Part shown: positions 41,926 to 53,158 of the stretch, piece by piece
Layout of the letters: the number at the start of each line of letters is the position of its first letter
Position numbering within the stretch: the stretch's first letter is position 1
Source of the DNA: Enterococcus wangshanyuanii
GTDB taxonomy: Bacteria; Bacillota; Bacilli; Lactobacillales; Enterococcaceae
DNA: 64,000 nt
Assembly: GCF_002197645.1 (NCBI RefSeq)
Contig: NZ_CP021874.1
Coordinates: forward strand, 3,778,362-3,842,361
Reading direction: 5' to 3'
The notes under the pieces: generated by a model
Databases searched by the model: none
Told to the model about the DNA's origin: nothing
Seen by the model: the letters and a program-made list of their open reading frames with translations, nothing else
Translations under genes and position numbers: made by a program

Positions 41926-42169
41926 TCCTAAATTAGCCAATCGTTTAAAACGTTCTGAAGGACAAATTCGCGGCGTTTTAAAAATGATGGAAGAAGGTAA
42001 GGATTGTCGAGAAGTTGTGACTCAGCTGATGGCTGTCCGTTCCAGTATCGATAAAGTAATCGGACTTGTTGTGACAGAGAATTTGAAACAATGTATGGAA
42101 GATGAGCAGATCGATCTTTCCAATGAAGATCTAGCAAAAGCTTTAGAGATGATCGTGAAAACTAGATAA
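41915..42169 (+). CDS. cstR: Persulfide-sensing repressor CstR (CsoR/DUF156 family)
   Basis: The 84-aa all-helical repressor belongs to the CsoR/RcnR family. It has C31 (EEGKDCREVV) and C60 (NLKQCMED), the two thiols by which CstR senses persulfides. The copper-binding His of CsoR (normally before the second Cys) is replaced by Asn in ENLKQC. That rules against copper sensing. The G-tract operator before the first rhodanese gene is its likely target. A terminator follows, so it is the last gene of the operon. Confidence 0.92.
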   Translation: MGCDPKLANRLKRSEGQIRGVLKMMEEGKDCREVVTQLMAVRSSIDKVIGLVVTENLKQCMEDEQIDLSNEDLAKALEMIVKTR

Positions 42170-42172
42170 AAA

Positions 42173-42218
42173 AAGCGTTAAACTTTTTAGCCAGAGGCCT
42201 GAAGTTTAACGTTTTTTT
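42173..42218 (+). terminator. Terminator of the cst operon
   Basis: AGCGTTAAACTT pairs with AAGTTTAACGTT with further inner pairing (AGCC/GGCC), then eight T. Confidence 0.88.
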
Positions 42219-42514
42219 TAGTGAATAGATGATTCGTAAGGTACTGATTTAGAATAATTAGTTCCAAATCATTAACACGTACTTTTTTTTATAGATCTAT
42301 TTCAAGAAGTAAAATATAACACTATTCAGAGAATCATATAGCCCTATTTTTTTGTTTTTTCTGAAAAAAATATTCGTAATAGCGATAAAATTTGAATTAT
42401 TTTGAAAAAAACAAATTAAATATAGTATAGTTTAAGTAGTGATGTTAAATAGTTGAAAAAAATAATTTGAAACCATTTTAGTTATTTAATTGAAAAAATA
42501 TGTTTTTGTCATTA
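42219..42514. other. AT-rich stretch left of the invertible segment
   Basis: No ORF is credible. TTGAAA (42402-42407) and TATAGT (42426-42431), 18 bases apart, form a possible rightward promoter that would read into the invertible segment. Its effect would therefore depend on the segment's orientation. Confidence 0.4.
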
Positions 42515-42543
42515 TTTTCTTATAACTTCTACTTATAAGAAAA
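42515..42543 (+). repeat. Recombinase site L (inverted partner of site R)
   Basis: TTTTCTTATAA and TTATAAGAAAA are perfect 11-bp inverted arms around CTTCTAC. This is the layout of a tyrosine-recombinase core site: two binding arms and a 7-bp crossover region. The same core in reverse complement is at 44048-44076. 25 of 29 bases match when site R is inverted. Confidence 0.85.
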
Positions 42544-42614
42544 AATGGTAAAAAAATCATATATATCTAGATTCCAAGCCGCCAAATGACCATTGCTTTG
42601 ACGGCTTTTAAAAC

Positions 42615-42649
42615 AAAAAAATAAAACCAATATCAGGATCTATTGGTTT
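42615..42649 (-). terminator. Terminator of the recombinase gene
   Basis: AAACCAATA pairs with TATTGGTTT around eight bases. The minus-strand exit is T-rich. A second hairpin (AAGCCGCCAAA with TTTGACGGCTT, 42576-42607) lies beyond it. After inversion these would stand between the recombinase and the WxL operon. Confidence 0.75.
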
Positions 42650-42653
42650 AATG

Positions 42654-43781
42654 TCATTTGAATAAAGGGGGTTTTTTCAACAATGCATCAACGGCTTTCA
42701 TGACTTCTTGTCGATGCTCCAACAATGAATCGGCATAGGTGTCGAGTGTGAGCTTTGTCGATCGATGCCCCAAAATTCGACTCAAGCTAACAATATCAAC
42801 TCCTTGTTCCAAACACCTAGTTGCAAATGTGTGTCTCAACACATGGAAATGAATCGATGCGAACTCTGTTTCACGAATCATTCGTTTAAAACGATAATTA
42901 ATGACTCTTGGCTCCGCCAGTTTTCCTCGACAATGAATCACGTATTCAGAAGGAGAGGTTTCTTTTTTTTCAAGTAAATAGTCTTTTAAATTAGTTGCTA
43001 AAGGAATCACTCTGCTAGAATATGCTGTTTTTGGGCTTCCAGAGATTAGTTCTGTTTTATTGATCGTGCTATGTTCATCGATAATTCTTGAAATCGTTCG
43101 ATGGACTCGAATCAATCCTTTATCAAAATCAATATCTTCCCATTTGAGTCCACTGATTTCTCCTATTCTCATCCCCGAATAGAGAGCTAAAATAATTGGG
43201 GAGCACTCCGTTTCACGGAAGGCCAGTTCTTCTAATTTTCTCTGCTCCTTACTACTTAATGAGTGAATAATCGGCACCGTGTGCTTAGGTAAATGTACTG
43301 AATTACATGGATTTTTATCTAAATACTCATTTTTTACTGCTTCTTTTAAGGATTTATTTACGATAGTAAAAATCAAACGAATCGTGCTGTTTGCTAGATT
43401 TTTAGCAAGTAATCCATCAACAAATTCTTGTAACAGTGCAGAAGTTATCTTTGCCAAATGATATTCTCCCAGAGTAGGCAAAATGTGCTTACTTAGCAAT
43501 CGAAAATAATTTGAATAAGTTGTGGCTTTCACTGTTCGTCTTACAGTATTATTAAGCCAGTAAATAATCCAATCTTGATACGTTTTATGGGAAGAAATCA
43601 CAGTCTCTTGAGTGACTAACTGTTTTGCTTTTAGAAAAATCAGCTTTTCTTTCACCTCACTATACTTTTTCCCATAGACGTATCCATAAATAATTTTTTT
43701 CGTTGGTGTTCGTTGTTTAATGTAACGACCTTCCCAGCGACCGTCTTTTCGTTTATAAATATTTTCTCCTTTTTTAGACAT
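42654..43781 (-). CDS. Tyrosine recombinase (phage-type integrase family), likely DNA invertase
   Basis: The 375-aa enzyme has an N-terminal AP2-like arm-binding region (KDGRWEGRYIKQRTPTKK), a core-binding SAM-like domain (KTYQDWIIYWLN, about residues 65-150) and the catalytic domain. The catalytic residues are Arg in YSGMRIGEISGLKWEDID, HVLRH, GHRS, and the nucleophile Tyr in LDTYADS. There is no excisionase, relaxase or phage gene nearby. It lies between two inverted core sites, so inversion of its own segment is the likely reaction, rather than element transfer. Confidence 0.9.
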   Translation of the reverse strand: MSKKGENIYKRKDGRWEGRYIKQRTPTKKIIYGYVYGKKYSEVKEKLIFLKAKQLVTQETVISSHKTYQDWIIYWLNNTVRRTVKATTYSNYFRLLSKHILPTLGEYHLAKITSALLQEFVDGLLAKNLANSTIRLIFTIVNKSLKEAVKNEYLDKNPCNSVHLPKHTVPIIHSLSSKEQRKLEELAFRETECSPIILALYSGMRIGEISGLKWEDIDFDKGLIRVHRTISRIIDEHSTINKTELISGSPKTAYSSRVIPLATNLKDYLLEKKETSPSEYVIHCRGKLAEPRVINYRFKRMIRETEFASIHFHVLRHTFATRCLEQGVDIVSLSRILGHRSTKLTLDTYADSLLEHRQEVMKAVDALLKKPPLFK

Positions 43782-43978
43782 CTTTCATCATTCCCTTCCA
43801 ACATTTCTTGACGATTATTTTGACGGCTCATTTTTATTTTTGATATAACGCTATGAAAACAATGTTTTTTAGTGATTAAAATCAGAAATTTGTTTTATAA
43901 GCAACAAAACTCTTTCATTATTCTCTTATTTTTCAAAAAAATATAAAAAAATTGATAAGATAAAAACGAAATAATACA

Positions 43979-44042
43979 TTGACTTCAAAGGTTTTTTAGA
44001 TTAAAGTTATCTTTGTTAAATGAATTCCGACTGAGATATAGA
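43979..44042 (+). promoter_or_regulatory. Outward promoter inside the invertible segment
   Basis: TTGACT (43979-43984) and TAAAGT (44002-44007) are 17 bases apart. TTGTTA (44013-44018) and TATAGA (44037-44042), 18 bases apart, make a second candidate. Both read right across site R toward the 44161 regulator. Both lie inside the invertible segment, so inversion would turn them away. A TATACT box at 44088-44093 outside the segment could also act with a -35 provided by site R. Confidence 0.6.
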
Positions 44043-44047
44043 CTCTA

Positions 44048-44076
44048 TTTTCCTACAAGTAGAAGTTATACGAAAG
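44048..44076 (-). repeat. Recombinase site R (inverted partner of site L)
   Basis: TTTTCCTACAA and TTATACGAAAG arms flank GTAGAAG, the exact reverse complement of the site L core. The arms are less perfect than those of site L, which could bias the direction of recombination. 1504 bp lie between the two sites. Confidence 0.85.
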
Positions 44077-44160: not shown

Positions 44161-44847
44161 ATGTATAAATTAGGAATTATATCAAAAAAAAATTATTCCG
44201 AAAAAATAATATCCGAGTTTGAAAAAAATGGTTTCATGCTGACATGTTTAACCAAAGAACAAATCTGTAGTGACGGATTGGATGGCATTTTTATTGAAGA
44301 AACAGAAGAACATTCAATCAGTCTCATTTGCGAATTGGTGTTGTCGATTCGCAAAGAAAGTGATGTGTTTATTTGGGTTCTCTCTAAAAAGTCAACGACT
44401 GTCGATCGGCAAGTTTATTTACAACTAGGGGTCGATAATGTATTTAATAGTAACTACTTTCCTGAAGAACCCTTATTAGTTATACGGAACACGTTTACTA
44501 GAAAAATGAAACAAATTCCAGCAGAACAAAAAACAGAAATGAATGATTCCGAAATAAATTCGATGAAATTGGACCCAAGAAATTTAAGTCTCTCTGTCGT
44601 TACAGGTGAAAACCAGGTGAAAGAAATTGCTTTGACAAAATTAGAGTATCGGATTATGGAACTATTATACAGCAATCCTGGAAAAGCCTTCTCATATAAA
44701 GAAATCCATGAAGCTCTTTGGAAAATTCCATACAGCGATCGGCCGTATCGGGTAGCTAATCTGGTTTTTCACATCAGAGATAAATTGGAAAATACATCTA
44801 TTTATATCAAGACTGTACGATCTAAAGGGTATCGATTGATTTTATAA
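44161..44847 (+). CDS. Winged-helix regulator with degenerate receiver domain
   Basis: The 228-aa protein has an N-terminal receiver-like half (KLGIISKKNYSEKIISEFE) without the usual phosphoacceptor Asp motif. The matching stretch is LDGIFIEETEEHS. Its C-terminal OmpR-type winged helix reads EIALTKLEYRIMELLYSN to IKTVRSKGYRLIL. Regulators of this type accompany WxL operons in enterococci. Control is therefore likely by protein level or another signal, not phosphorylation. It is the first gene downstream of the invertible promoter, with GGGAGG before the ATG. Confidence 0.85.
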   Translation: MYKLGIISKKNYSEKIISEFEKNGFMLTCLTKEQICSDGLDGIFIEETEEHSISLICELVLSIRKESDVFIWVLSKKSTTVDRQVYLQLGVDNVFNSNYFPEEPLLVIRNTFTRKMKQIPAEQKTEMNDSEINSMKLDPRNLSLSVVTGENQVKEIALTKLEYRIMELLYSNPGKAFSYKEIHEALWKIPYSDRPYRVANLVFHIRDKLENTSIYIKTVRSKGYRLIL

Positions 44848-44869
44848 GCAGTTGAAAGGAGGTGAAAAA

Positions 44870-47800
44870 ATGAAAAGGAAAAAAAGACTCTATTTATTTC
44901 TAAGTTTCATTACGATCGTAGGCATCTATTTTTACCATAGTACACCATTGCTTAAAGCAGAAGAATCTACCAGTCAAAGTACTGTAGAGTCGACACCGCC
45001 CCTTTCAACAACCGAGTCATCTAAAGCTGATGTTACTAAAAATGAATCTTCAACGCTAGGTGAGACTAATAAGAATGTAAAGACTATACAGCCCCAAATG
45101 ACAAATCTTGAAACGTTTGAATTATCAGAAAATGGGACGGGGATCGTAGCTAAGAATATAGCAAAAACAATGACGGATATTCAAAGCTATAACGGTGATA
45201 CTGAAGCAATCAAACAGATGATTCTCAGAGATACTGAGGCAAAAGCATATGGAGTGTCTGGCGGATCTATCGTTGAAGTAACCGATAAGATCCAACTATC
45301 TGATCTAAAAGGACTTGATACAGTTGCAACGAATGATCTACAAGAGTTTCATTTGACGTTGACCGTTCCTTCAAGTGAGTCAGGAACAGGCAGCGATTTG
45401 ACAAGTGAAGTCATCGTTTATGTCGGAAATGTAGCAAAAGTAAGTACATGGGATCAACTGGATGCTGCATTGATGAGTAACACGGTAACGATTGTCGATG
45501 TGCAAAATTCTATGACCAATACTGTAACGAACAGGACGGATCGAACTGTCTCGGATAACCGACCAAATTATGTGTTATTAGGAAATGGTTACTCTCTTGA
45601 TTTTATTGGCTATTCTTATAGATGGGGAACGAATACATCGATCGTACACAAAGCAGTTGTCGATAATGTAGATATGTATGGAGGGCACTATTATGGACCT
45701 GTGACGATGTGGGATAGAAATGCCTATGGCTCAAGTATCACGTATCGAAATGTAAATTATACAGGTTCACAAGTGACGGCCTCTTTCCAAGCGCTTTTAC
45801 GCTTTGAAGGGAAAAACGTCATTAAGTCTAAAGCAACAAGTTACACCTCTTATGATGGAGCTACTCGCAATATGGCCAATACCAATCAATCTGGTTTAGA
45901 GTCACATACACTTTTATTTGCATCTAATACGGACACAACGATCGAAGTAGAAAATGGTGATGGTGTGATTTTAGGTAGCTGGTACTCTAACTATGATACG
46001 GTCGCAACGATTCAACCTTCTTTGACTTTAGAAGAAAATGCTACTGCAACGATTCGTACGTTAGGGAACGCGGGAGAAACAAATTCTTGGCAAACTGATG
46101 GCGGCAATATTCCTTCTGTGATCAGCGTTCAAAGAAATGGAAAAATAAATGTCGGTAAAAACGCCACATTAAATGTTGAGACCGCAGATGGAACAACACG
46201 TGTACCCGTACGTTTAGGTTACCAATCAGCAACCTCTCAATGGACGACGAGTATCGATCTGGAGGAAAGCAGTCATTTCAATGTGAACATCAACGGTCCG
46301 ATTGCGACGACTAGTTCACGTGCAGGATTTATGCTTCAACAAAATTCCGCTATCAATGTCGGTGACAATGCAGAGATGACTATCAATGCAAATCAGATGA
46401 CAGCTGGTGCTCCGGTCATTTCTATGGGACAAAACGCCAAATTTGATGTCGCAGAAAAAGGGCAGCTGACGTTGAATAAAAACGGGGGAGTTGGACGTCT
46501 TCTTGATCTTTCTAATGGCTCTAAATTTAAAGTAAGTGATCAAGGTGCAACAAAGTTTATTTCCACAAATGAAGGAACATCGACAAGCTCAATGATCTAT
46601 GGAGGTAGTGGTTCTTCTTTTATTATTGGTGATAAAGGAACCTTTGAGTCTGTTATTAAAGATGGGACTGGCGTTCGGAATATGCTGGATTTTGGTAGCA
46701 ATACTACCTTCCAATTCTCGAATGCTCAAAAAATAGACTTGGATTCACGGGGGAATACAAATGCAAATTTGATCAATATGACGAATCCAGGGACGTTTAC
46801 AGCTGATATTCAGGAAGTTTCTTCTTGGAGTAAGCAGGATGCAGCACAAGTAACACCAACATTCCACTGGACACCGATGTATGGAATGACGATCAAGTAT
46901 AACGGTATTACTACAACAAGTGTTTCAGGAAATAGTATTACAAATGCGATCCAAACAAATTTCATAAATAACTATCGAACAGAAAACTTTTCAAGAATTG
47001 TTTATGATTATATTCCAGATGTGATCGTTGGAGTAGATGAAATCAGTGATAATAAAGCACTAGAAAGCGGTCAAAAAATTTCTGGGACAGTCAATAATGA
47101 TGCAGCAATGCTGTTTTATCTAGTAACAGATGAAAACGATCCAAGTAAAGATGTATTGTTAACAACTCCGGATGTAGCTTCTCCAGTTGAAGGCGATGCA
47201 CGAAAATTTCATACGATCGCGGATGATAAAGGAAAGTTTACTTTTGAGTTACCTGAGAATGTTACGTTGAAAGCAGGACAAAAGATAAAAGCTTATGGAT
47301 GGTTAAATGGGAAGGACAGCTACACGAATCAAACAGTTTTAGATAAAACGCCTCCAAAAGGAGAGTCCGTAAATTATCATGTTGCTTTAAACGAAGCTGC
47401 ACCGACTGCAGATAAATTTGTAAGTAATCCAACCGATTCTAATCCAACACCACAAAATTTCACGTATGCTTTTAATGCAGAAACACCGCAGTCGTTGGTT
47501 GACAGCTTTATGGGTCAACTTGGTGAACATACTGTAAAAGTCGACTTATCGGATGAAGCAGGTAATATGACGACTGTTGTATCTACTCTTACTGTGAACA
47601 AGGCAACACAAGAAATTTATGGCTCTGATATAGAAGCACCTTATGTCGATATTCGTAATTTATCCGAAGAACAACTGAAAAATTACATTCTTACGCATAG
47701 CCAACCAACCGCGTACAAATTAATGGATGGTGAAAAAACAGATCTTAGTTCATTTATAAAAGTGACGGATTTTGGTGGATTGAATGATATCGCAACCATT

Positions 47801-48559
47801 CAACCTAAAGCATATCCCGTGACGCTAACAGTCAAAGCTAGCGATTCAGGATTGCCAACAGATATCTCTACGACGATCAATGTCACAGTTGTTGACGTAG
47901 ACGCAGTGTTGAATGTCGAGTTTGTGAATGAAGTAGAGCAAGTACTTTCAGGTTATACAGTGACACTTGATACACAGGTAGGAGATACGATCGATCTGAC
48001 TAAAAATACTGAAGTTCAAGGTCAATTAGAGAACGTATTATCAGCAGGGTATGATATCGCTCAACGTCCAGAAAATGAGACTGCAGTAAAAATTGATAAT
48101 ACAACGGTGACTGTAAGATACAAACTGCAGGGGGTATTGAGTTTAACTTCAGTACCGCATGCGTTGGATTTTGGAACATTGTCGTATGATGCAACAACCA
48201 AACGAGTAGAAGAGCCAGTTTTTGATGAGCAACTTGTTGTGACTGACACGCGTGCAGAAGCAGCGAATGGTTGGCGTATGACCGCTTCCTTGTCTTCTCC
48301 AATGCAAAATGCCAAAGGGCAAGAATTGACGAATGCTTTACGCTATGTGAATCAAGGAAAAGAAACGATTTTAAACCAAGATGCACAAGTTATTTATACC
48401 AATACGCAAGGGACTATGGGGAGCTATACTGTCAGCAACGGCTGGGGAACTGCCCCTAATACGGATGGAATCAAGCTTCAAATCAATTCCTCAGATACGG
48501 TATATACAGGAGATTATGTTGGCGTCATTACATGGAAAGTGATGGCAGGACAACCATAA
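44870..48559 (+). CDS. Large WxL-domain surface protein with beta-helix-like core
   Basis: The exported protein of about 1229 aa has a signal peptide (LYLFLSFITIVGIYF), a Ser/Thr-rich spacer, and a long repetitive region (about residues 240-620). The repeats, with many Asn/Gly ladders (INVGDNAEMTINANQMT), suggest a right-handed beta helix. Ig-like or bacterial cadherin-type parts follow (residues 640-1060). The C-terminal WxL wall-binding domain starts near residue 1065, with GVLSLTSVPHALDFGTL, NGWRMTASLS and the terminal GVITWKVMAG. It would bind peptidoglycan non-covalently. AAAGGAGGTG precedes ATG 44870. Ligand unknown; adhesion is a common role. Confidence 0.88.
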   Translation: MKRKKRLYLFLSFITIVGIYFYHSTPLLKAEESTSQSTVESTPPLSTTESSKADVTKNESSTLGETNKNVKTIQPQMTNLETFELSENGTGIVAKNIAKTMTDIQSYNGDTEAIKQMILRDTEAKAYGVSGGSIVEVTDKIQLSDLKGLDTVATNDLQEFHLTLTVPSSESGTGSDLTSEVIVYVGNVAKVSTWDQLDAALMSNTVTIVDVQNSMTNTVTNRTDRTVSDNRPNYVLLGNGYSLDFIGYSYRWGTNTSIVHKAVVDNVDMYGGHYYGPVTMWDRNAYGSSITYRNVNYTGSQVTASFQALLRFEGKNVIKSKATSYTSYDGATRNMANTNQSGLESHTLLFASNTDTTIEVENGDGVILGSWYSNYDTVATIQPSLTLEENATATIRTLGNAGETNSWQTDGGNIPSVISVQRNGKINVGKNATLNVETADGTTRVPVRLGYQSATSQWTTSIDLEESSHFNVNINGPIATTSSRAGFMLQQNSAINVGDNAEMTINANQMTAGAPVISMGQNAKFDVAEKGQLTLNKNGGVGRLLDLSNGSKFKVSDQGATKFISTNEGTSTSSMIYGGSGSSFIIGDKGTFESVIKDGTGVRNMLDFGSNTTFQFSNAQKIDLDSRGNTNANLINMTNPGTFTADIQEVSSWSKQDAAQVTPTFHWTPMYGMTIKYNGITTTSVSGNSITNAIQTNFINNYRTENFSRIVYDYIPDVIVGVDEISDNKALESGQKISGTVNNDAAMLFYLVTDENDPSKDVLLTTPDVASPVEGDARKFHTIADDKGKFTFELPENVTLKAGQKIKAYGWLNGKDSYTNQTVLDKTPPKGESVNYHVALNEAAPTADKFVSNPTDSNPTPQNFTYAFNAETPQSLVDSFMGQLGEHTVKVDLSDEAGNMTTVVSTLTVNKATQEIYGSDIEAPYVDIRNLSEEQLKNYILTHSQPTAYKLMDGEKTDLSSFIKVTDFGGLNDIATIQPKAYPVTLTVKASDSGLPTDISTTINVTVVDVDAVLNVEFVNEVEQVLSGYTVTLDTQVGDTIDLTKNTEVQGQLENVLSAGYDIAQRPENETAVKIDNTTVTVRYKLQGVLSLTSVPHALDFGTLSYDATTKRVEEPVFDEQLVVTDTRAEAANGWRMTASLSSPMQNAKGQELTNALRYVNQGKETILNQDAQVIYTNTQGTMGSYTVSNGWGTAPNTDGIKLQINSSDTVYTGDYVGVITWKVMAGQP

Positions 48560-48573
48560 AAGGAGAGAGAAAA

Positions 48574-48900
48574 ATGAAACAAATGCGAGTTATCTTGTTC
48601 TGTTGCTCTCTGATTCTATGGATAGGGGTCTTTTCTACAGAAACCGTTGTTCAGGCAAATGAAGGAAATGGTGGTCAAGTCATTACAGATGGAAAAATTT
48701 CATTTTATGAAGGAACGACTGAGACCAGCAGTTCTACCAGCACAGAACCCAGTTCAGCGACGCCAAGCAAATCGATTGGAAAACCGCTTCCTAATACGGG
48801 AGAACAGATCAAACACTATAGTCTAATTGGAGGCGGCTTGCTTCTTTTAGTCCTAATCTTTCTCTTTTTTACTAACAGGAGAAAGGGGGAGCAGAAATGA
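48574..48900 (+). CDS. Small LPXTG-anchored protein of the WxL operon
   Basis: This 108-aa protein has a signal peptide (VILFCCSLILWIGVFSTE), a short Ser/Thr stretch and the sortase motif LPNTGEQ, followed by a hydrophobic segment and RRKGEQK. AAAGGAGAGAG precedes ATG 48574. WxL loci typically contain one such short covalently anchored partner, thought to help hold the WxL complex at the wall. Its last four bases overlap the next ORF (ATGA), so translation is coupled. Confidence 0.9.
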   Translation: MKQMRVILFCCSLILWIGVFSTETVVQANEGNGGQVITDGKISFYEGTTETSSSTSTEPSSATPSKSIGKPLPNTGEQIKHYSLIGGGLLLLVLIFLFFTNRRKGEQK

Positions 48901-49703
48901 GATTCACACACACTTCTTTTATAGCTAGTATGACGGGTCTTGTCCTTTTGTTTAGTATCAATAGTTTATCTGTGCAGGCAGCTCCCGATACTATGGAGCA
49001 ATCTGGATCAGTCTCAGTAAAAGGAAGTTCAACGACAAACCCTGTTGATCCTGAAAATCCAGGTACAATAGTTGATCCTGGGAAAAGCCCATCTACAACA
49101 GGTCCACTTCGGATCGATTATGTATCAGCACTTGATTTTGGTGAAAGTAAAATCACGAAAGGTGCTCGTCGATACAATGCACGAGCGCAACAATTTTTTG
49201 GTGATACAGGACCAAGAGGAAGTTATATCCAGATCACAGATCAGCAGGCGGATTCCTCAGGCTGGACATTACAGGTCAAACAAGAGAAGCAATTTACGAA
49301 TCCGATCATTCAAAACGTTGAGGAACAAGAGTTGAAAGGGGCAGTCTTGTCTTTGGATAAAGGCTGGGCAAATTCTAGTAGTATTAGTGAAGCCCCAACA
49401 GTAACACGCGAAACGATTGCTTTGAATTCGATTGGTTCGGCATATGAAGTAGCGACTGCACGAAAAAATAGTGGTAAAGGAATTTGGACGATCACATTCG
49501 GTGCTTCAGAGAGCAATACGAATAATCAACCTCATACACTAACACCAGTCGTTGATGCTTCACATAAGCCAATTATAGATCAAACCTATAACAAGCCAGT
49601 GTATAGCAATTCAGCAATTACTCTGACCGTACCAGAAACAACGGTGATACATCCGGTCGAATATCAAACGGAGATAACTTGGATATTAGCCAAGTTGCCT
49701 TAA
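48897..49703 (+). CDS. WxL-domain surface protein (first small)
   Basis: The 268-aa protein has a signal peptide and a Pro/Asp-rich linker (TNPVDPENPGTIVDPGKSP). The WxL domain has both motifs: SSGWTLQVKQ near residue 120 and EITWILAKLP at the C-terminus. LDFGESKI marks the domain start. The domain binds peptidoglycan without covalent linkage. It is paralogous to the next gene. The start overlaps the LPXTG gene stop. Confidence 0.92.
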   Translation: MRFTHTSFIASMTGLVLLFSINSLSVQAAPDTMEQSGSVSVKGSSTTNPVDPENPGTIVDPGKSPSTTGPLRIDYVSALDFGESKITKGARRYNARAQQFFGDTGPRGSYIQITDQQADSSGWTLQVKQEKQFTNPIIQNVEEQELKGAVLSLDKGWANSSSISEAPTVTRETIALNSIGSAYEVATARKNSGKGIWTITFGASESNTNNQPHTLTPVVDASHKPIIDQTYNKPVYSNSAITLTVPETTVIHPVEYQTEITWILAKLP

Positions 49704-49736
49704 TAAATTACACACACTTTTAGGAGGAACAACAAT

Positions 49737-50522
49737 ATGAAAGCAAGAAGTCTTTGTGCAACAACATTAGCAGCAATTTTAGGAGTAACTTTATTAGGAA
49801 GTGCTACACCTGCATTTGCAGCTCCAACAGAATTAAATTCAACTGGTACAGTCAAAGTTGAAGAAGGAACAGCCGGTGGTGGAGATCAAGGAACAGTCGA
49901 TCCAGAAAACCCTAACGAAGTATTACCAGATCCTGATCCAGAATCACCTGGAGAAAATACAAACTCTGATAAAGGGCCTTTAGTTGTTGAAAAAACAACT
50001 GATCTAGATTTTGGTACGATCAAAACTTCTGCAGATGCAGTTACAAGTTTTGCTAAACCAATGAGCTTTGAAGCAGGAGCAAAAACTCGTGGCGCATATG
50101 TTCAATGGGCAGATGTTCGTTCAGGCGGTACGTATGGATACACTGTGACAGCACAATTATCAAGTCAATTCAAAGATACTACAGGAACAAATGTATTGAC
50201 AGGTTCAACAATTGATTTTAGTAATGGACTTGTTTCTGCACAAGGAAGCAATACAAATACAGTGCCATCAAATGCACAAACAGCATTCCAATTAACAGAA
50301 GCAGCAGATGATGCTAAAACGATCGTAACTGCCAGCAAAGATTTAAAAGAAGGTAAAGGTCGTTATATCATGGAATTTGGTCAAAGTAAAGATTCTACAG
50401 TAGGGACTCCAGATACGGATACGAGCTCTGTTAAATTAACTGTACCGGCAGCAACGGCTTCAAATATGGCAGCAACTGATTATACAGCAACAGTAACATG
50501 GAAAATCGTTGCAGCACAATAA
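49737..50522 (+). CDS. WxL-domain surface protein (second small)
   Basis: The 261-aa protein has a clean signal peptide (SLCATTLAAILGVTLLG, cleavage after AFA) and an acidic Pro-rich linker. The WxL domain starts at LDFGTIKTSADA. The first Trp motif is replaced by GGTYGYTVTAQ, while the final WxL (ATVTWKIVAAQ) is intact. GGAGGAACAACAAT precedes the ATG. After the stop, a hairpin without T-run (50551-50581, ACAGaCCAACAAG with CTTGTTGG) lies before the next gene and may lower downstream expression. Confidence 0.92.
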   Translation: MKARSLCATTLAAILGVTLLGSATPAFAAPTELNSTGTVKVEEGTAGGGDQGTVDPENPNEVLPDPDPESPGENTNSDKGPLVVEKTTDLDFGTIKTSADAVTSFAKPMSFEAGAKTRGAYVQWADVRSGGTYGYTVTAQLSSQFKDTTGTNVLTGSTIDFSNGLVSAQGSNTNTVPSNAQTAFQLTEAADDAKTIVTASKDLKEGKGRYIMEFGQSKDSTVGTPDTDTSSVKLTVPAATASNMAATDYTATVTWKIVAAQ

Positions 50523-50550
50523 GCATAATAAACTGATTCTAACAGTTTTT

Positions 50551-50581
50551 ACAGACCAACAAGTGAATCTTGTTGGCCTGT
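50551..50581 (+). promoter_or_regulatory. Intergenic hairpin in the WxL operon
   Basis: CCAACAAG pairs with CTTGTTGG around five bases, with flanking ACAG/CTGT. No T-run follows, so partial attenuation or RNA processing is more likely than a full stop. Confidence 0.5.
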
Positions 50582-50619
50582 ATACATAGAAAATCATTTC
50601 AAAATAAGCGAGGTTGGTT

Positions 50620-51692
50620 ATGAAAACACATAAGTCTTTTACGCTGCAGTATACTATTTTGGTTTTTAGTATAATTGTAGGATTTTTATTTTTAGCTAAA
50701 GCAACAGCGGTGTCTGCTGAGGAGGAGAATTCTGCAGGTGCAACAGGATTTACCTATAGTATCAGTTTTCCAGATAATCAAATAGATAAAGAATTAGGTT
50801 ATTACAAGTTGAAAATGACGCCTGGACAGGAACAGCAATTAAGTATTATGTTAAGCAATCCAAGTGCAGAAAAGGTTGTGATCGATGTCAAATTGAATGG
50901 GGCAAAGACCAATCAAAACGGTGTGATCGAATATGGTGAATCAGCGATCAAAAATGATCCATCCTTAAAATTCAATTTTATTGACCTTGTAGAAGGCCCA
51001 AAATCTGTTGAATTAGCGCCAGGAGAAACTAAAAGTTTAGAGTTGACAGTTAAAATGCCAGAGACAGAGTATGATGGAGTCATTGCCGGTGGTATTCAAT
51101 TGATGCGTGCCGGACAAGAGGCAACAACGAATAGTGGTGGATCTAAAATCATCAATCAATACGCCTATGTCATTGGTGTACTTTTACAGGAGAATGAGGC
51201 TGTAATTCAACCCGATTTATCATTGAATAGTGTAAAAGCAGGCCAAAACAATTACCGAAATGCAATTTTTATCAACTATTCTAATACCAAAGCTGCTTAT
51301 TTAAATGATATGACTGCAGAAGTACAATTACTGAAAAAGGGAAAGAAACAGTCTTATATGAGCGAAAACAAACAGCTATGCGGATGGCGCCAAATTCGTT
51401 TATCGATTTTCCTGTTAGCATGAACGGCGAGCGAATGATCCCTGGAGATTATGAAGCAGATATTCTGATCACTTCTGGGGATAAAAAATGGGCTTGGAAA
51501 CAAGCATTCAAAATTACCGATGAAGATGCAAATAAATTCAATGAGCGAGATGTCGGTTTAGTTCAGGAAAAAAGTTTGGATTGGAAATTGATCCTATTAC
51601 TTGTTGCAGCATTTCTTATAGGAATTTTCCTTCTTTTCTTAGTTGTTCATTTCTTTAGAAAAAAAAAAGCACAAAAAGAATATCACGAATAA
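50620..51692 (+). pseudogene. DUF916/DUF3324 WxL-partner membrane protein, frameshifted
   Basis: Proteins of this type (WxL-interacting, DUF916 plus DUF3324) are anchored by one C-terminal helix and link WxL proteins to the envelope. A signal peptide, the DUF916 domain (KELGYYKLKMTPGQEQQLSI) and part of DUF3324 are read from ATG 50620. The frame is lost near 51370 and ends at 51421-51423. The second frame (51378 on) continues exactly where the family should (APNSFIDFPVSM), through the membrane helix, to 51692. One missing base in a short A-run (GAAAACAAACAGC) explains it. Either a real null allele or an assembly error. Confidence 0.85.
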
Positions 51693-51785: not shown

Positions 51786-52446
51786 GTGTCTACTATAGAT
51801 TGGATTTTCATTATAGGTATAGCAATGACGATCGTTGTGCTCCTCGGATCAGGTTATTTTTAGTGAGATTCATACGAATAAAACAGCAAATCAGACGACT
51901 GCCAGCCAGGCGGTTAAAAATAAAAAAGCAGCGAATAGTAGTGAAAAAGCGAAAATGCTTATAAAAAAGCAAAAATCAGTTTTAGATTTTTCTACTGCTC
52001 TTATTTTTAACAGGATTATTTGCTGGTGCGACCAGTTACCTTTCTTATTATCAAGCGATGAACCTGACGACGAATGATTCAGATTCAGTAGTGAAGGGAT
52101 ATTATCTTTTACGTGATTTGAACAACAATTAGCGGTTGCTAAAGAAAAAGGCGACAATGAAGAAAAAATGCAGAAAAATATCCGCTATTTAGCGACAGCG
52201 ATGGCCAGCTACGGAACAAAAACAGCCAGTACAATCAATTCAAAAGAAGGTCAGTTGACATTGAATCGTTATTATAATGCGATCAAGCAAGTTGGGATGA
52301 ATGCCAGTACACAAACTAAAAATTTTTATGGAAATGCCCAAATCGTTGATAGCTTTTTAGAAGATATAGAGAAAGTAAAAGTTTACGAGAAAGCAGCATT
52401 TACTTATTATAAAGTCGATGAAACAGCCTTTTCAGAAGAAAAGTAG
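51786..52446 (+). pseudogene. WxL-operon membrane protein with three frameshifts
   Basis: The reading restored by hand is a two-helix membrane protein. It starts at GTG 51786 (AGGGGAG upstream) with a first helix (IDWIFIIGIAMTIVVLLGSG) and a Lys/Ala-rich linker (EIHTNKTANQTTASQAV). A second helix (LTGLFAGATSYLSYY) follows, and then a helical tail to 52446 (KNIRYLATAMASYGTK). Three shifts are needed: +1 at T5 near 51861, +1 at T5 near 52008, -1 near 52118. No family is recognised, but similar helical proteins occur in WxL loci. The density of indels makes decay or poor sequence equally possible. Confidence 0.65.
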
Positions 52447-52462
52447 GCGGAGTGAAAAAGTC

Positions 52463-53158
52463 ATGAAGAGAAAATCATTGCCTAATCCCTCAACTGTCAA
52501 GAAAATAAGCGGAAACCCTGCTAAAGAAAAGGGACAGCGCCGTATTCATTCGTCTAAAAAGCATAGAAATAAACGTCAGATACAGAAGAAACGCGTACTA
52601 ACTACATCAAGCAAAAAGAAACAAGCTCGTCATAAGCGTAAAAGAATCGTTAAAGAGTTATTTTTAGCTTTTTTTAGTGGAAGTATTCTTATACTGTTAG
52701 TTAGCTTTTATTTTGTTAGGATCATTACCGTGAGTGGGTTTGGGATGGTTCCGACTCTACGTGAAGGAGATAAGGTAGTAACGAGAAAAACGAGTGATCT
52801 AAAAAGATTTGATTTAGCTGTCTTTACTTTAGGCAAAGAAAAAAAACAAGTTCGACGTATAATCGGTTTGCCGGGAGAGACAGTTTATTATCAGTCAGAT
52901 ATTTTATACGTTAATGAGCATCCGATCGATGAAAAATTTTTGATCGAAGAGATCAATGAAAACCAAAAAAATGGCCGCAATTATACGGAAGACTTCACAC
53001 GAAAAACAGTCGTGGTCCCTGACCAATATTATTTTGTATTAGGAGATAATCGACCATATGCGACAGATAGTCGGCATTATGGATTCGTAGCTAAGAAGAA
53101 TATCATCGGAAAAGTAACGGCTCAGTTTTTTCCGATCAATGAATTCAAAGTCTTTTGA
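52463..53158 (+). CDS. Signal-peptidase-I-like protein lacking the catalytic dyad
   Basis: The protein of about 231 aa has the S26 signal peptidase fold: one membrane helix (FLAFFSGSILILLVSFYFV), box B TVSGFGMVPTL, RRIIGLPGE, and box E YFVLGDNRPYATDSRHYG. In active enzymes box B has the catalytic Ser (SM) and box D starts with Lys. Here these are Gly (GFGMVP) and Arg (VRRIIG), so it should be inactive. A basic N-terminal extension of about 65 residues (HRNKRQIQKKR) is also unusual. A non-catalytic assembly role in the WxL complex is inferred, by analogy with inactive signal peptidase homologues in some pilus loci. Confidence 0.85.
   Translation: MKRKSLPNPSTVKKISGNPAKEKGQRRIHSSKKHRNKRQIQKKRVLTTSSKKKQARHKRKRIVKELFLAFFSGSILILLVSFYFVRIITVSGFGMVPTLREGDKVVTRKTSDLKRFDLAVFTLGKEKKQVRRIIGLPGETVYYQSDILYVNEHPIDEKFLIEEINENQKNGRNYTEDFTRKTVVVPDQYYFVLGDNRPYATDSRHYGFVAKKNIIGKVTAQFFPINEFKVF

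What the first reader, a model, noticed from the sequence alone, without database searches (positions are those of the whole stretch)
42515..44076. Self-inverting promoter segment with its own tyrosine recombinase, in front of a WxL surface-protein operon
Seen: two 29-bp sites, each with 11-bp inverted arms around a 7-bp core (CTTCTAC at left, its exact reverse complement GTAGAAG at right), 25/29 identical after inversion, 1504 bp apart. The only gene between them is an intact tyrosine recombinase. Outward promoter candidates (TTGACT-17-TAAAGT; TTGTTA-18-TATAGA) lie inside and point to the WxL regulator. Known: tyrosine recombinases act on arm-core-arm sites and invert DNA between inverted sites. 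Inference: phase-variable on/off control of a nine-kilobase surface operon. I know of no described switch of this form for a WxL locus.
Basis: partly seen in the sequence, partly recalled or inferred. Interest (0 to 1): 0.95.

Follow-up and report, generated by a model that had tools for sequence, protein, structure and literature searches.

The report
Self-flipping promoter switch for surface operon
In this enterococcal genome a 1.5-kilobase stretch of DNA that carries its own recombinase gene is found in both orientations, and flipping it is predicted to turn a promoter towards or away from an adjoining run of cell-surface genes, so that a minority of cells would likely switch that coat on.

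Summary
The window is the last 64 kb of contig C1. The contig's two ends overlap by 40 kb with no substitution outside the two sites (29 one-base length differences), yet the 1.5-kb segment lies one way at one end and the other way at the other; the swapped bases place the exchange in a 14-base stretch that contains the 7-bp core. A second natural inversion separates orthologues in related species.

The segment belongs to a family. All 22 genomes searched in the genus carry the recombinase. Of 84 segments with clear sites, 74 hold an outward TNGACN-17-TANNNT promoter at the recombinase's 5' end, 0 inward; 84 have an NCGTCA motif before the recombinase gene and 82 after it, predicted arm sites of a lambda/Tn1549-like integrase. 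The window's orientation (promoter facing the regulator, predicted ON) is rare: 2 of 77. WxL genes follow 21 of 25 switches checked in four genomes; random places give 0.8.

Expression was not testable. Known kind (invertible promoter), new variant: an integrase-type, self-contained, multi-copy cassette tied to WxL operons.

The parts
42515..42543 (+). left recombination site, arm-core-arm, core CTTCTAC at 42526-42532
   Evidence: exchange mapped here, between 42520 and 42535, by comparison with the other contig end
44048..44076 (-). right recombination site, inverted copy, core GTAGAAG at 44059-44065
42654..43781 (-). tyrosine recombinase (INT), 375 aa, inside the segment
   Evidence: PF00589 and PF14659; R205, K251, H313, R316, H339, Y349 in all 84 family members aligned; fold closest to Tn1549 and lambda integrases
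43979..44007 (+). outward promoter TTGACT-17-TAAAGT, faces the regulator in this orientation
   Evidence: same type in 74 of 84 related segments, 0 of 84 on the other strand
43808..43828 (-). predicted arm-type pair at the recombinase's 5' end (AGCCGTCAAAATAATCGTCAA)
   Evidence: NCGTCA in 84 of 84 segments at this end; position
42587..42606 (-). predicted arm-type pair at the recombinase's 3' end (AGCCGTCAAAGCAATGGTCA)
   Evidence: 82 of 84 segments; in the 79 used for the consensus it starts 47-67 bp from the site; position
42167..42220. hairpin with A and T runs between the flank gene and the segment, probable terminator in both directions (by reading; one search did not list it)
   Evidence: inverted repeat I2
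44161..44847 (+). regulator (REG) with OmpR-type winged-helix C-terminus, first gene beyond the right site
   Evidence: PF00486; within 600 bp of a site in 77 of 84 family loci
44852..48559 (+). large surface protein with a pectate-lyase-like adhesive domain
   Evidence: PF20585
48532..48900 (+). small LPXTG surface protein of the EF2685/EF0750 family
   Evidence: PF00746, NF053819
48897..49703 (+). WxL surface protein 1
   Evidence: PF13731, E 7e-47
49737..50522 (+). WxL surface protein 2
   Evidence: PF13731, E 7e-32
50614..51692 (+). WxL-interacting protein, frame broken in this copy, whole in the copy at the other contig end
   Evidence: PF06030 and PF11797
52418..53158 (+). signal peptidase, same strand, possibly the end of the unit
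   Evidence: PF10502

Best explanation
This is an invertible DNA segment, seen in both orientations in the genome's own assembly, that likely works as an on/off switch: its recombinase is predicted to flip it between two inverted sites and so point a conserved promoter towards (ON, the window's orientation) or away from (OFF) the regulator and WxL surface genes next door. Shown: both orientations of the same locus, exchange within a 14-base stretch containing the core, an intact recombinase with all six catalytic positions, the conserved outward promoter type, and a conserved neighbourhood. Inferred: that this recombinase and not a paralogue does the flipping; that its N-terminal domain binds the two CGTCA pairs and bridges them to the cores; that the promoter is active and drives the regulator and the genes behind it as one unit of about 7.5 to 9 kb; that the regulator acts on that operon; that ON cells are the minority.
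For: Both orientations at the two ends of contig C1, which overlap over 40 kb with no substitution outside the sites; outer arm differences stay, inner ones travel. Opposite orientation in G007 against orthologues in G014 and G021 with collinear flanks at 78-85% identity. Outward TNGACN-17-TANNNT in 74 of 84 segments against 0 of 84 inward, shuffles 2.0, recombinase body 1-2, flanks 0-4; in the mostly clostridial set 13 of 44 outward, 0 inward. No comparable promoter signal in the other five classes tested, among them the 150 bp between site and regulator. Regulator within 600 bp in 77 of 84. WxL genes 2.8-5.9 kb downstream of 21 of 25 switches in four genomes; random places give a mean of 0.8, maximum 5 in 2000 trials. 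Catalytic residues 100% in 84. Arm-type motif at both ends with a 97% conserved N-terminal stretch and a lambda/Tn1549-like fold.
Against: No reads or RNA were available, so orientation ratios and expression are unmeasured. The assembly evidence rests on one contig whose nature (untrimmed circle) is inferred. The window promoter's second hexamer (TAAAGT) is imperfect, and a plain scan of the region is no better than shuffles. 10 of 84 segments lack the strict promoter pattern; 13 of 96 recombinase loci show no clear site pair and 7 of 84 no regulator within 600 bp. Terminators between recombinase and regulator are not general (16 of 84), so read-through in the other orientation is not excluded. 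On a crude ORF count, 33 of 82 loci have a flank gene that the promoter would face in the common orientation. Pfam finds no arm-binding domain.
Confidence: 0.85

Rival explanations
1. Reverse polarity: the common orientation (recombinase reading towards the regulator) is the ON state, through read-through of the recombinase transcript or a flank promoter, and the window orientation is OFF.
For: 75 of 77 loci have the common orientation; forward terminators between recombinase and regulator were found in only 16 of 84; a flank promoter candidate TTGAAA-18-TATAGT points into the segment at 42402-42431.
Against: Only the outward promoter at the recombinase's 5' end is conserved; inward, 3'-end, left-flank and site-to-regulator classes are near shuffles (for the strict pattern). 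In the common orientation the conserved promoter points away from the regulator.
Confidence: 0.08
2. Assembly artefact: the opposite orientation at the other contig end was made by misjoining short inverted repeats and no cell carries it.
For: Contig ends can be built from few reads; the 40-kb overlap differs by 29 one-base length differences, so at least one end is unpolished.
Against: The sites share only a 14-base exact stretch, arms swapped cleanly with no error inside the segment, and an independent case of opposite orientation exists between related species.
Confidence: 0.03
3. Remnant of a mobile element: an integrase stranded between its own end sequences, with no switching role.
For: The closest solved structure is the integrase of the conjugative transposon Tn1549; the recombinase family is multi-copy.
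Against: The ends are inverted, which suits inversion and not excision; no other sizeable gene lies inside; neighbourhood, polarity and outward promoter are conserved; sites differ from copy to copy within the genomes listed.
Confidence: 0.03

Closest known systems
fimS of E. coli and other invertible promoters worked by tyrosine recombinases (recalled; FimB/FimE and the C. difficile pdcB/pdcC invertible promoters are named in passages of PMC11868660)
   Same: A promoter on a segment between inverted sites, on/off control of surface or signalling genes.
   Different: Here the recombinase gene lies inside the segment and the enzyme carries an extra N-terminal domain with a matching conserved motif at both ends.
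Hin-type self-inverting segments (recalled)
   Same: Recombinase gene inside its own invertible promoter segment.
   Different: Hin is a serine recombinase with an enhancer; this is a tyrosine recombinase (PF00589).
Tn1549 and lambda integrases
   Same: Best fold matches over 320-380 alignment columns; predicted arm-site pairs.
   Different: Inverted, not direct, sites; no other sizeable gene inside, hence no excisionase seen there; role predicted to be inversion.
Clostridial inverton group 139 with tyrosine invertase group 35 (PMC11892184, passages seen)
   Same: 33 invertons, 32 from Clostridia, linked to nearby tyrosine recombinases; the paper reports surface genes near invertons in general.
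   Different: The two group 139 examples with printed coordinates span about 200-230 bp between repeats, with no room for a recombinase gene; 'Enterococcus' and 'WxL' occur 0 times in the main text. Whether the recombinases are the same family was not tested.
PsrA and hsdS inversions of Streptococcus pneumoniae (abstract starts seen)
   Same: Gram-positive tyrosine recombinase that inverts DNA.
   Different: It rearranges coding sequence of hsdS genes, not a promoter.

Membership tests
Invertible promoter (inverton) with a tyrosine recombinase | Inverted site pair flanking the segment | tested here: met
Invertible promoter (inverton) with a tyrosine recombinase | Both orientations exist | tested here: met
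   both ends of contig C1; orthologues L137 against L133 and L136
Invertible promoter (inverton) with a tyrosine recombinase | Tyrosine recombinase with catalytic R-K-H-R-H-Y | tested here: met
   all six positions invariant in 84
Invertible promoter (inverton) with a tyrosine recombinase | Promoter inside the segment, directed outward | tested here: met
   sequence and conservation only, 74 of 84; activity not tested
Invertible promoter (inverton) with a tyrosine recombinase | Expression of the neighbour depends on orientation | not testable with these tools
   needs RNA or a reporter
Heterobivalent (lambda/Tn916-type) integrase | N-terminal arm-binding domain | tested here: inconclusive
   no Pfam arm-domain match; model has three strands and a helix at residues 8-64; lambda integrase matched over 365-380 columns; residues 4-20 97% conserved
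Heterobivalent (lambda/Tn916-type) integrase | Arm-type sites beside the core sites | tested here: inconclusive
   conserved motif at both ends; binding untested
Integrative mobile element | Direct (not inverted) end sites and further mobility genes inside | tested here: not met
   sites inverted; one sizeable gene inside
WxL surface operon | WxL-domain proteins together with a WxL-interacting protein | tested here: met
   PF13731 in two proteins, PF06030 and PF11797

The most novel reading that the evidence does not exclude
Enterococci of this group carry a dedicated, self-contained switch cassette: an integrase turned into an invertase, with a private core site for nearly every copy, paired arm sites and one outward promoter. 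Several to a dozen independent copies per genome let each cell draw its own combination of WxL surface coats, and the same cassette drives other surface genes in Clostridia.
Probability: 0.6. Interest if true: 0.82.

Novelty: new variant of a known kind. Interest (0 to 1): 0.74.

Why it matters
WxL proteins are a large and poorly understood class of Gram-positive surface proteins (recalled). A genus-wide set of self-contained switches would give a directly testable reason why such loci are silent in most cells of a culture: DNA orientation. Populations would then hold mixed coats, which bears on adhesion and on phage and immune recognition. It also offers a natural set of paralogous invertases with different sites for asking how an integrase with predicted arm sites is confined to inversion.

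Tried and rejected
Assembly artefact, mobile-element remnant and reversed polarity were considered (see rivals). The second promoter candidate was set aside because its second hexamer is not conserved in the closest relative (alignment, by reading). A terminator between recombinase and regulator as a family feature was not supported: 16 of 84 forward, 6 of 84 reverse. The plain promoter and terminator scan of the region was no better than shuffles, so the comparative result carries the promoter. A two-neighbour switch (promoter serving one operon in each orientation) is not favoured here because the left flank gene points at the segment, but it stays open for other loci: 33 of 82 flank genes lie the other way on a crude ORF count. 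In the mostly clostridial set the polarity test was not informative: of 44 loci, 36 have an ORF on the recombinase's 3' side and 26 on its 5' side.

Rows dropped: 13 of 96 fetched loci with site score under 17 were left out of the 84-segment counts, as was L001, the second copy of this locus. In one search one of 85 segments gave no outward stretch. In one search, 2 of 51 loci had too little flank, and the site threshold was lower (14). In one search, 3 of the 82 3' motifs lacked full context and were not used for the consensus. In one search at most 20 candidates per genome were scored. In one search, 112 of 115 WxL matches of G004 and G014 were on the cut list and used; G002 39 of 39; own genome 33 after removing the 3 repeats from the contig overlap.

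Papers: ten searches seen as listings with abstract starts. Passages seen: PMC11892184, PMC11868660, PMC9779914 (its one 'inverton' is a reference title; phase variation there concerns restriction systems), PMC9244547 (the words meet only by chance and in a reference), PMC5071367 (no switch), PMC3796261 (no switch). The 2019 inverton paper, PMC6543533, is not held: nothing seen, recalled only.

Full report
Observation. The two sites, the spacing, the single intact recombinase gene and the first promoter are as described. The left site's arms match 11/11, the right site's 8/11; inverted matches of 25/29 at this kind of spacing appeared in 3 overlapping frames and in none of 30 shuffles.

Organism. 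Same-genus handle G019 has contigs of the same lengths as records of Enterococcus termitis (274647 and 406527 bases), and the nearest named recombinases are enterococcal, so I take it as an Enterococcus; the species is not settled.

Inversion seen. A search of the window's own genome with the recombinase returned two identical copies near the two ends of contig C1. The window is C1:3778362-3842361, the end of a 3842361-base contig. Window 23880-63999 aligns to C1:1-40127 with no substitution outside the sites and 29 one-base length differences, nearly all in single-base runs. This looks like the untrimmed overlap of a circular long-read contig; a real 40-kb duplication is less likely and would not change the conclusion. 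Within the overlap the segment is inverted. The two sites differ at four of 29 positions; after inversion the two outer differences stay and the two inner ones travel with the segment, so the exchange fell in 42521-42534, which contains the core 42526-42532. That is what a tyrosine recombinase should leave.

Second case. In genome G007 (L137) the segment points the other way from its orthologues in G014 and G021 (L133, L136), while the flanks stay collinear, main pieces at 78-85% identity.

Family. The recombinase is found at E<=1e-100 in 22 of 22 genus genomes, own included, up to 10 per genome, and at E<=1e-80 in 32 of 98 family genomes and 4 of 17 genera, up to 20 per genome with at most 20 candidates scored. 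I fetched 96 such loci. A clear inverted site pair (score 17 or more; shuffles gave 7-16) flanks the recombinase in 83 of 96; with the window that makes 84 segments. These are paralogues and orthologues, not independent samples. Sites differ within the four genomes listed, except one near-identical pair in G004 (L220, L221); site identity rises with recombinase identity (Spearman 0.43 over 3486 non-independent pairs).

Promoter. Between the recombinase start and the near site, the outward strand carries TNGACN-17-TANNNT in 74 of 84 and the inward strand in 0 of 84; shuffles average 2.0, the recombinase body 1 and 2, flanks 0-4. Of six promoter classes only this one stood clearly above shuffles (30% of segments over the shuffles' 95% level; the others 2-11%). 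The strict pattern was written; the mostly clostridial set is a partly independent check, 13 of 44 outward and 0 inward. The regulator lies within 600 bp of a site in 77 of 84: in 75 the recombinase reads towards it, so the promoter faces away; in 2 (the window and L137) the promoter faces it. I therefore read the window as the rare ON state. This is inference; no expression was measured, and an assembly is not a population count.

Arm sites. Before the recombinase start (median 47 bp, range 33-205) all 84 segments carry NCGTCA, consensus AAGCCGTCAAAAAAACCGTCAA; after its stop 82 of 84 do, and in the 79 used for the consensus the motif starts 47-67 bp from the site. TGACGGC is on one strand in 76 of 84 5' ends and on the other in 0. 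The same motif is the commonest 8-mer at both ends in the mostly clostridial relatives, whose core sites differ. Residues 4-20 of the recombinase are 97% conserved against 51-65% elsewhere, the model (mean pLDDT 87) shows three strands and a helix in the first 64 residues, and the best fold matches are Tn1549 and lambda integrases. Binding is predicted, not shown; Pfam gave no arm-domain match.

What it controls. Regulator, adhesin-like protein, LPXTG protein, two WxL proteins and a WxL-interacting protein follow on one strand with short gaps, 44161-51692, and a signal peptidase at 52418-53158. In four genomes 21 of 25 switches with clear sites have a WxL match 2.8-5.9 kb downstream on the same strand (own genome 5 of 6, G004 8 of 9, G002 3 of 5, G014 5 of 5); random places and strands give a mean of 0.8 and at most 5. 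In the mostly clostridial set I scanned ten large neighbours out of 44 loci: five have surface-type domains (DUF7601, Listeria-Bacteroides repeat, S-layer), one is a sugar transferase, one has only a match below its cut-off, three match nothing.

Known or new. Ten full-text searches of the held library found no WxL phase switch; subscription papers are mostly not covered, and the main 2019 inverton paper is not held. Promoter inversion by tyrosine recombinases is a known kind, so this is a new variant: recombinase inside the segment, integrase-type with predicted arm sites, multi-copy, tied to WxL operons.

Noticed in passing
window 23880-63999 and C1:1-40127 (L009-L011): The contig's two ends overlap by about 40 kb with only one-base length differences outside the sites, so C1 looks like an untrimmed circle and this stretch is counted twice in the assembly.
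   Followed up: yes
50614-51692: The WxL-interacting protein is split in two frames in the window but whole (380 aa) in the copy at the other contig end, so the break is probably a sequencing error.
   Followed up: yes
L222, L223 (own genome C1:3223503 and C1:2451114): Two recombinase relatives without WxL genes nearby: L222 has sites but no regulator within 600 bp, L223 has no recognisable site pair.
   Followed up: no
L220 and L221 (genome G004, two contigs): Two switches whose listed sites are almost identical, so their recombinases might act on each other's sites.
   Followed up: no
L156 and L159 (genome G002): Recombinases with no clear site pair that still stand before WxL genes; possibly decayed or more distant sites.
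   Followed up: no
L035, L041-L091, mostly Clostridia: 44 of 49 relatives show the same layout of sites and CGTCA motif; five of ten large neighbours scanned have surface-type domains.
   Followed up: partly
own genome: The regulator family has 14 matches here, counting this locus twice, and not all lie beside a switch, so many WxL loci seem to have the regulator without the switch.
   Followed up: no
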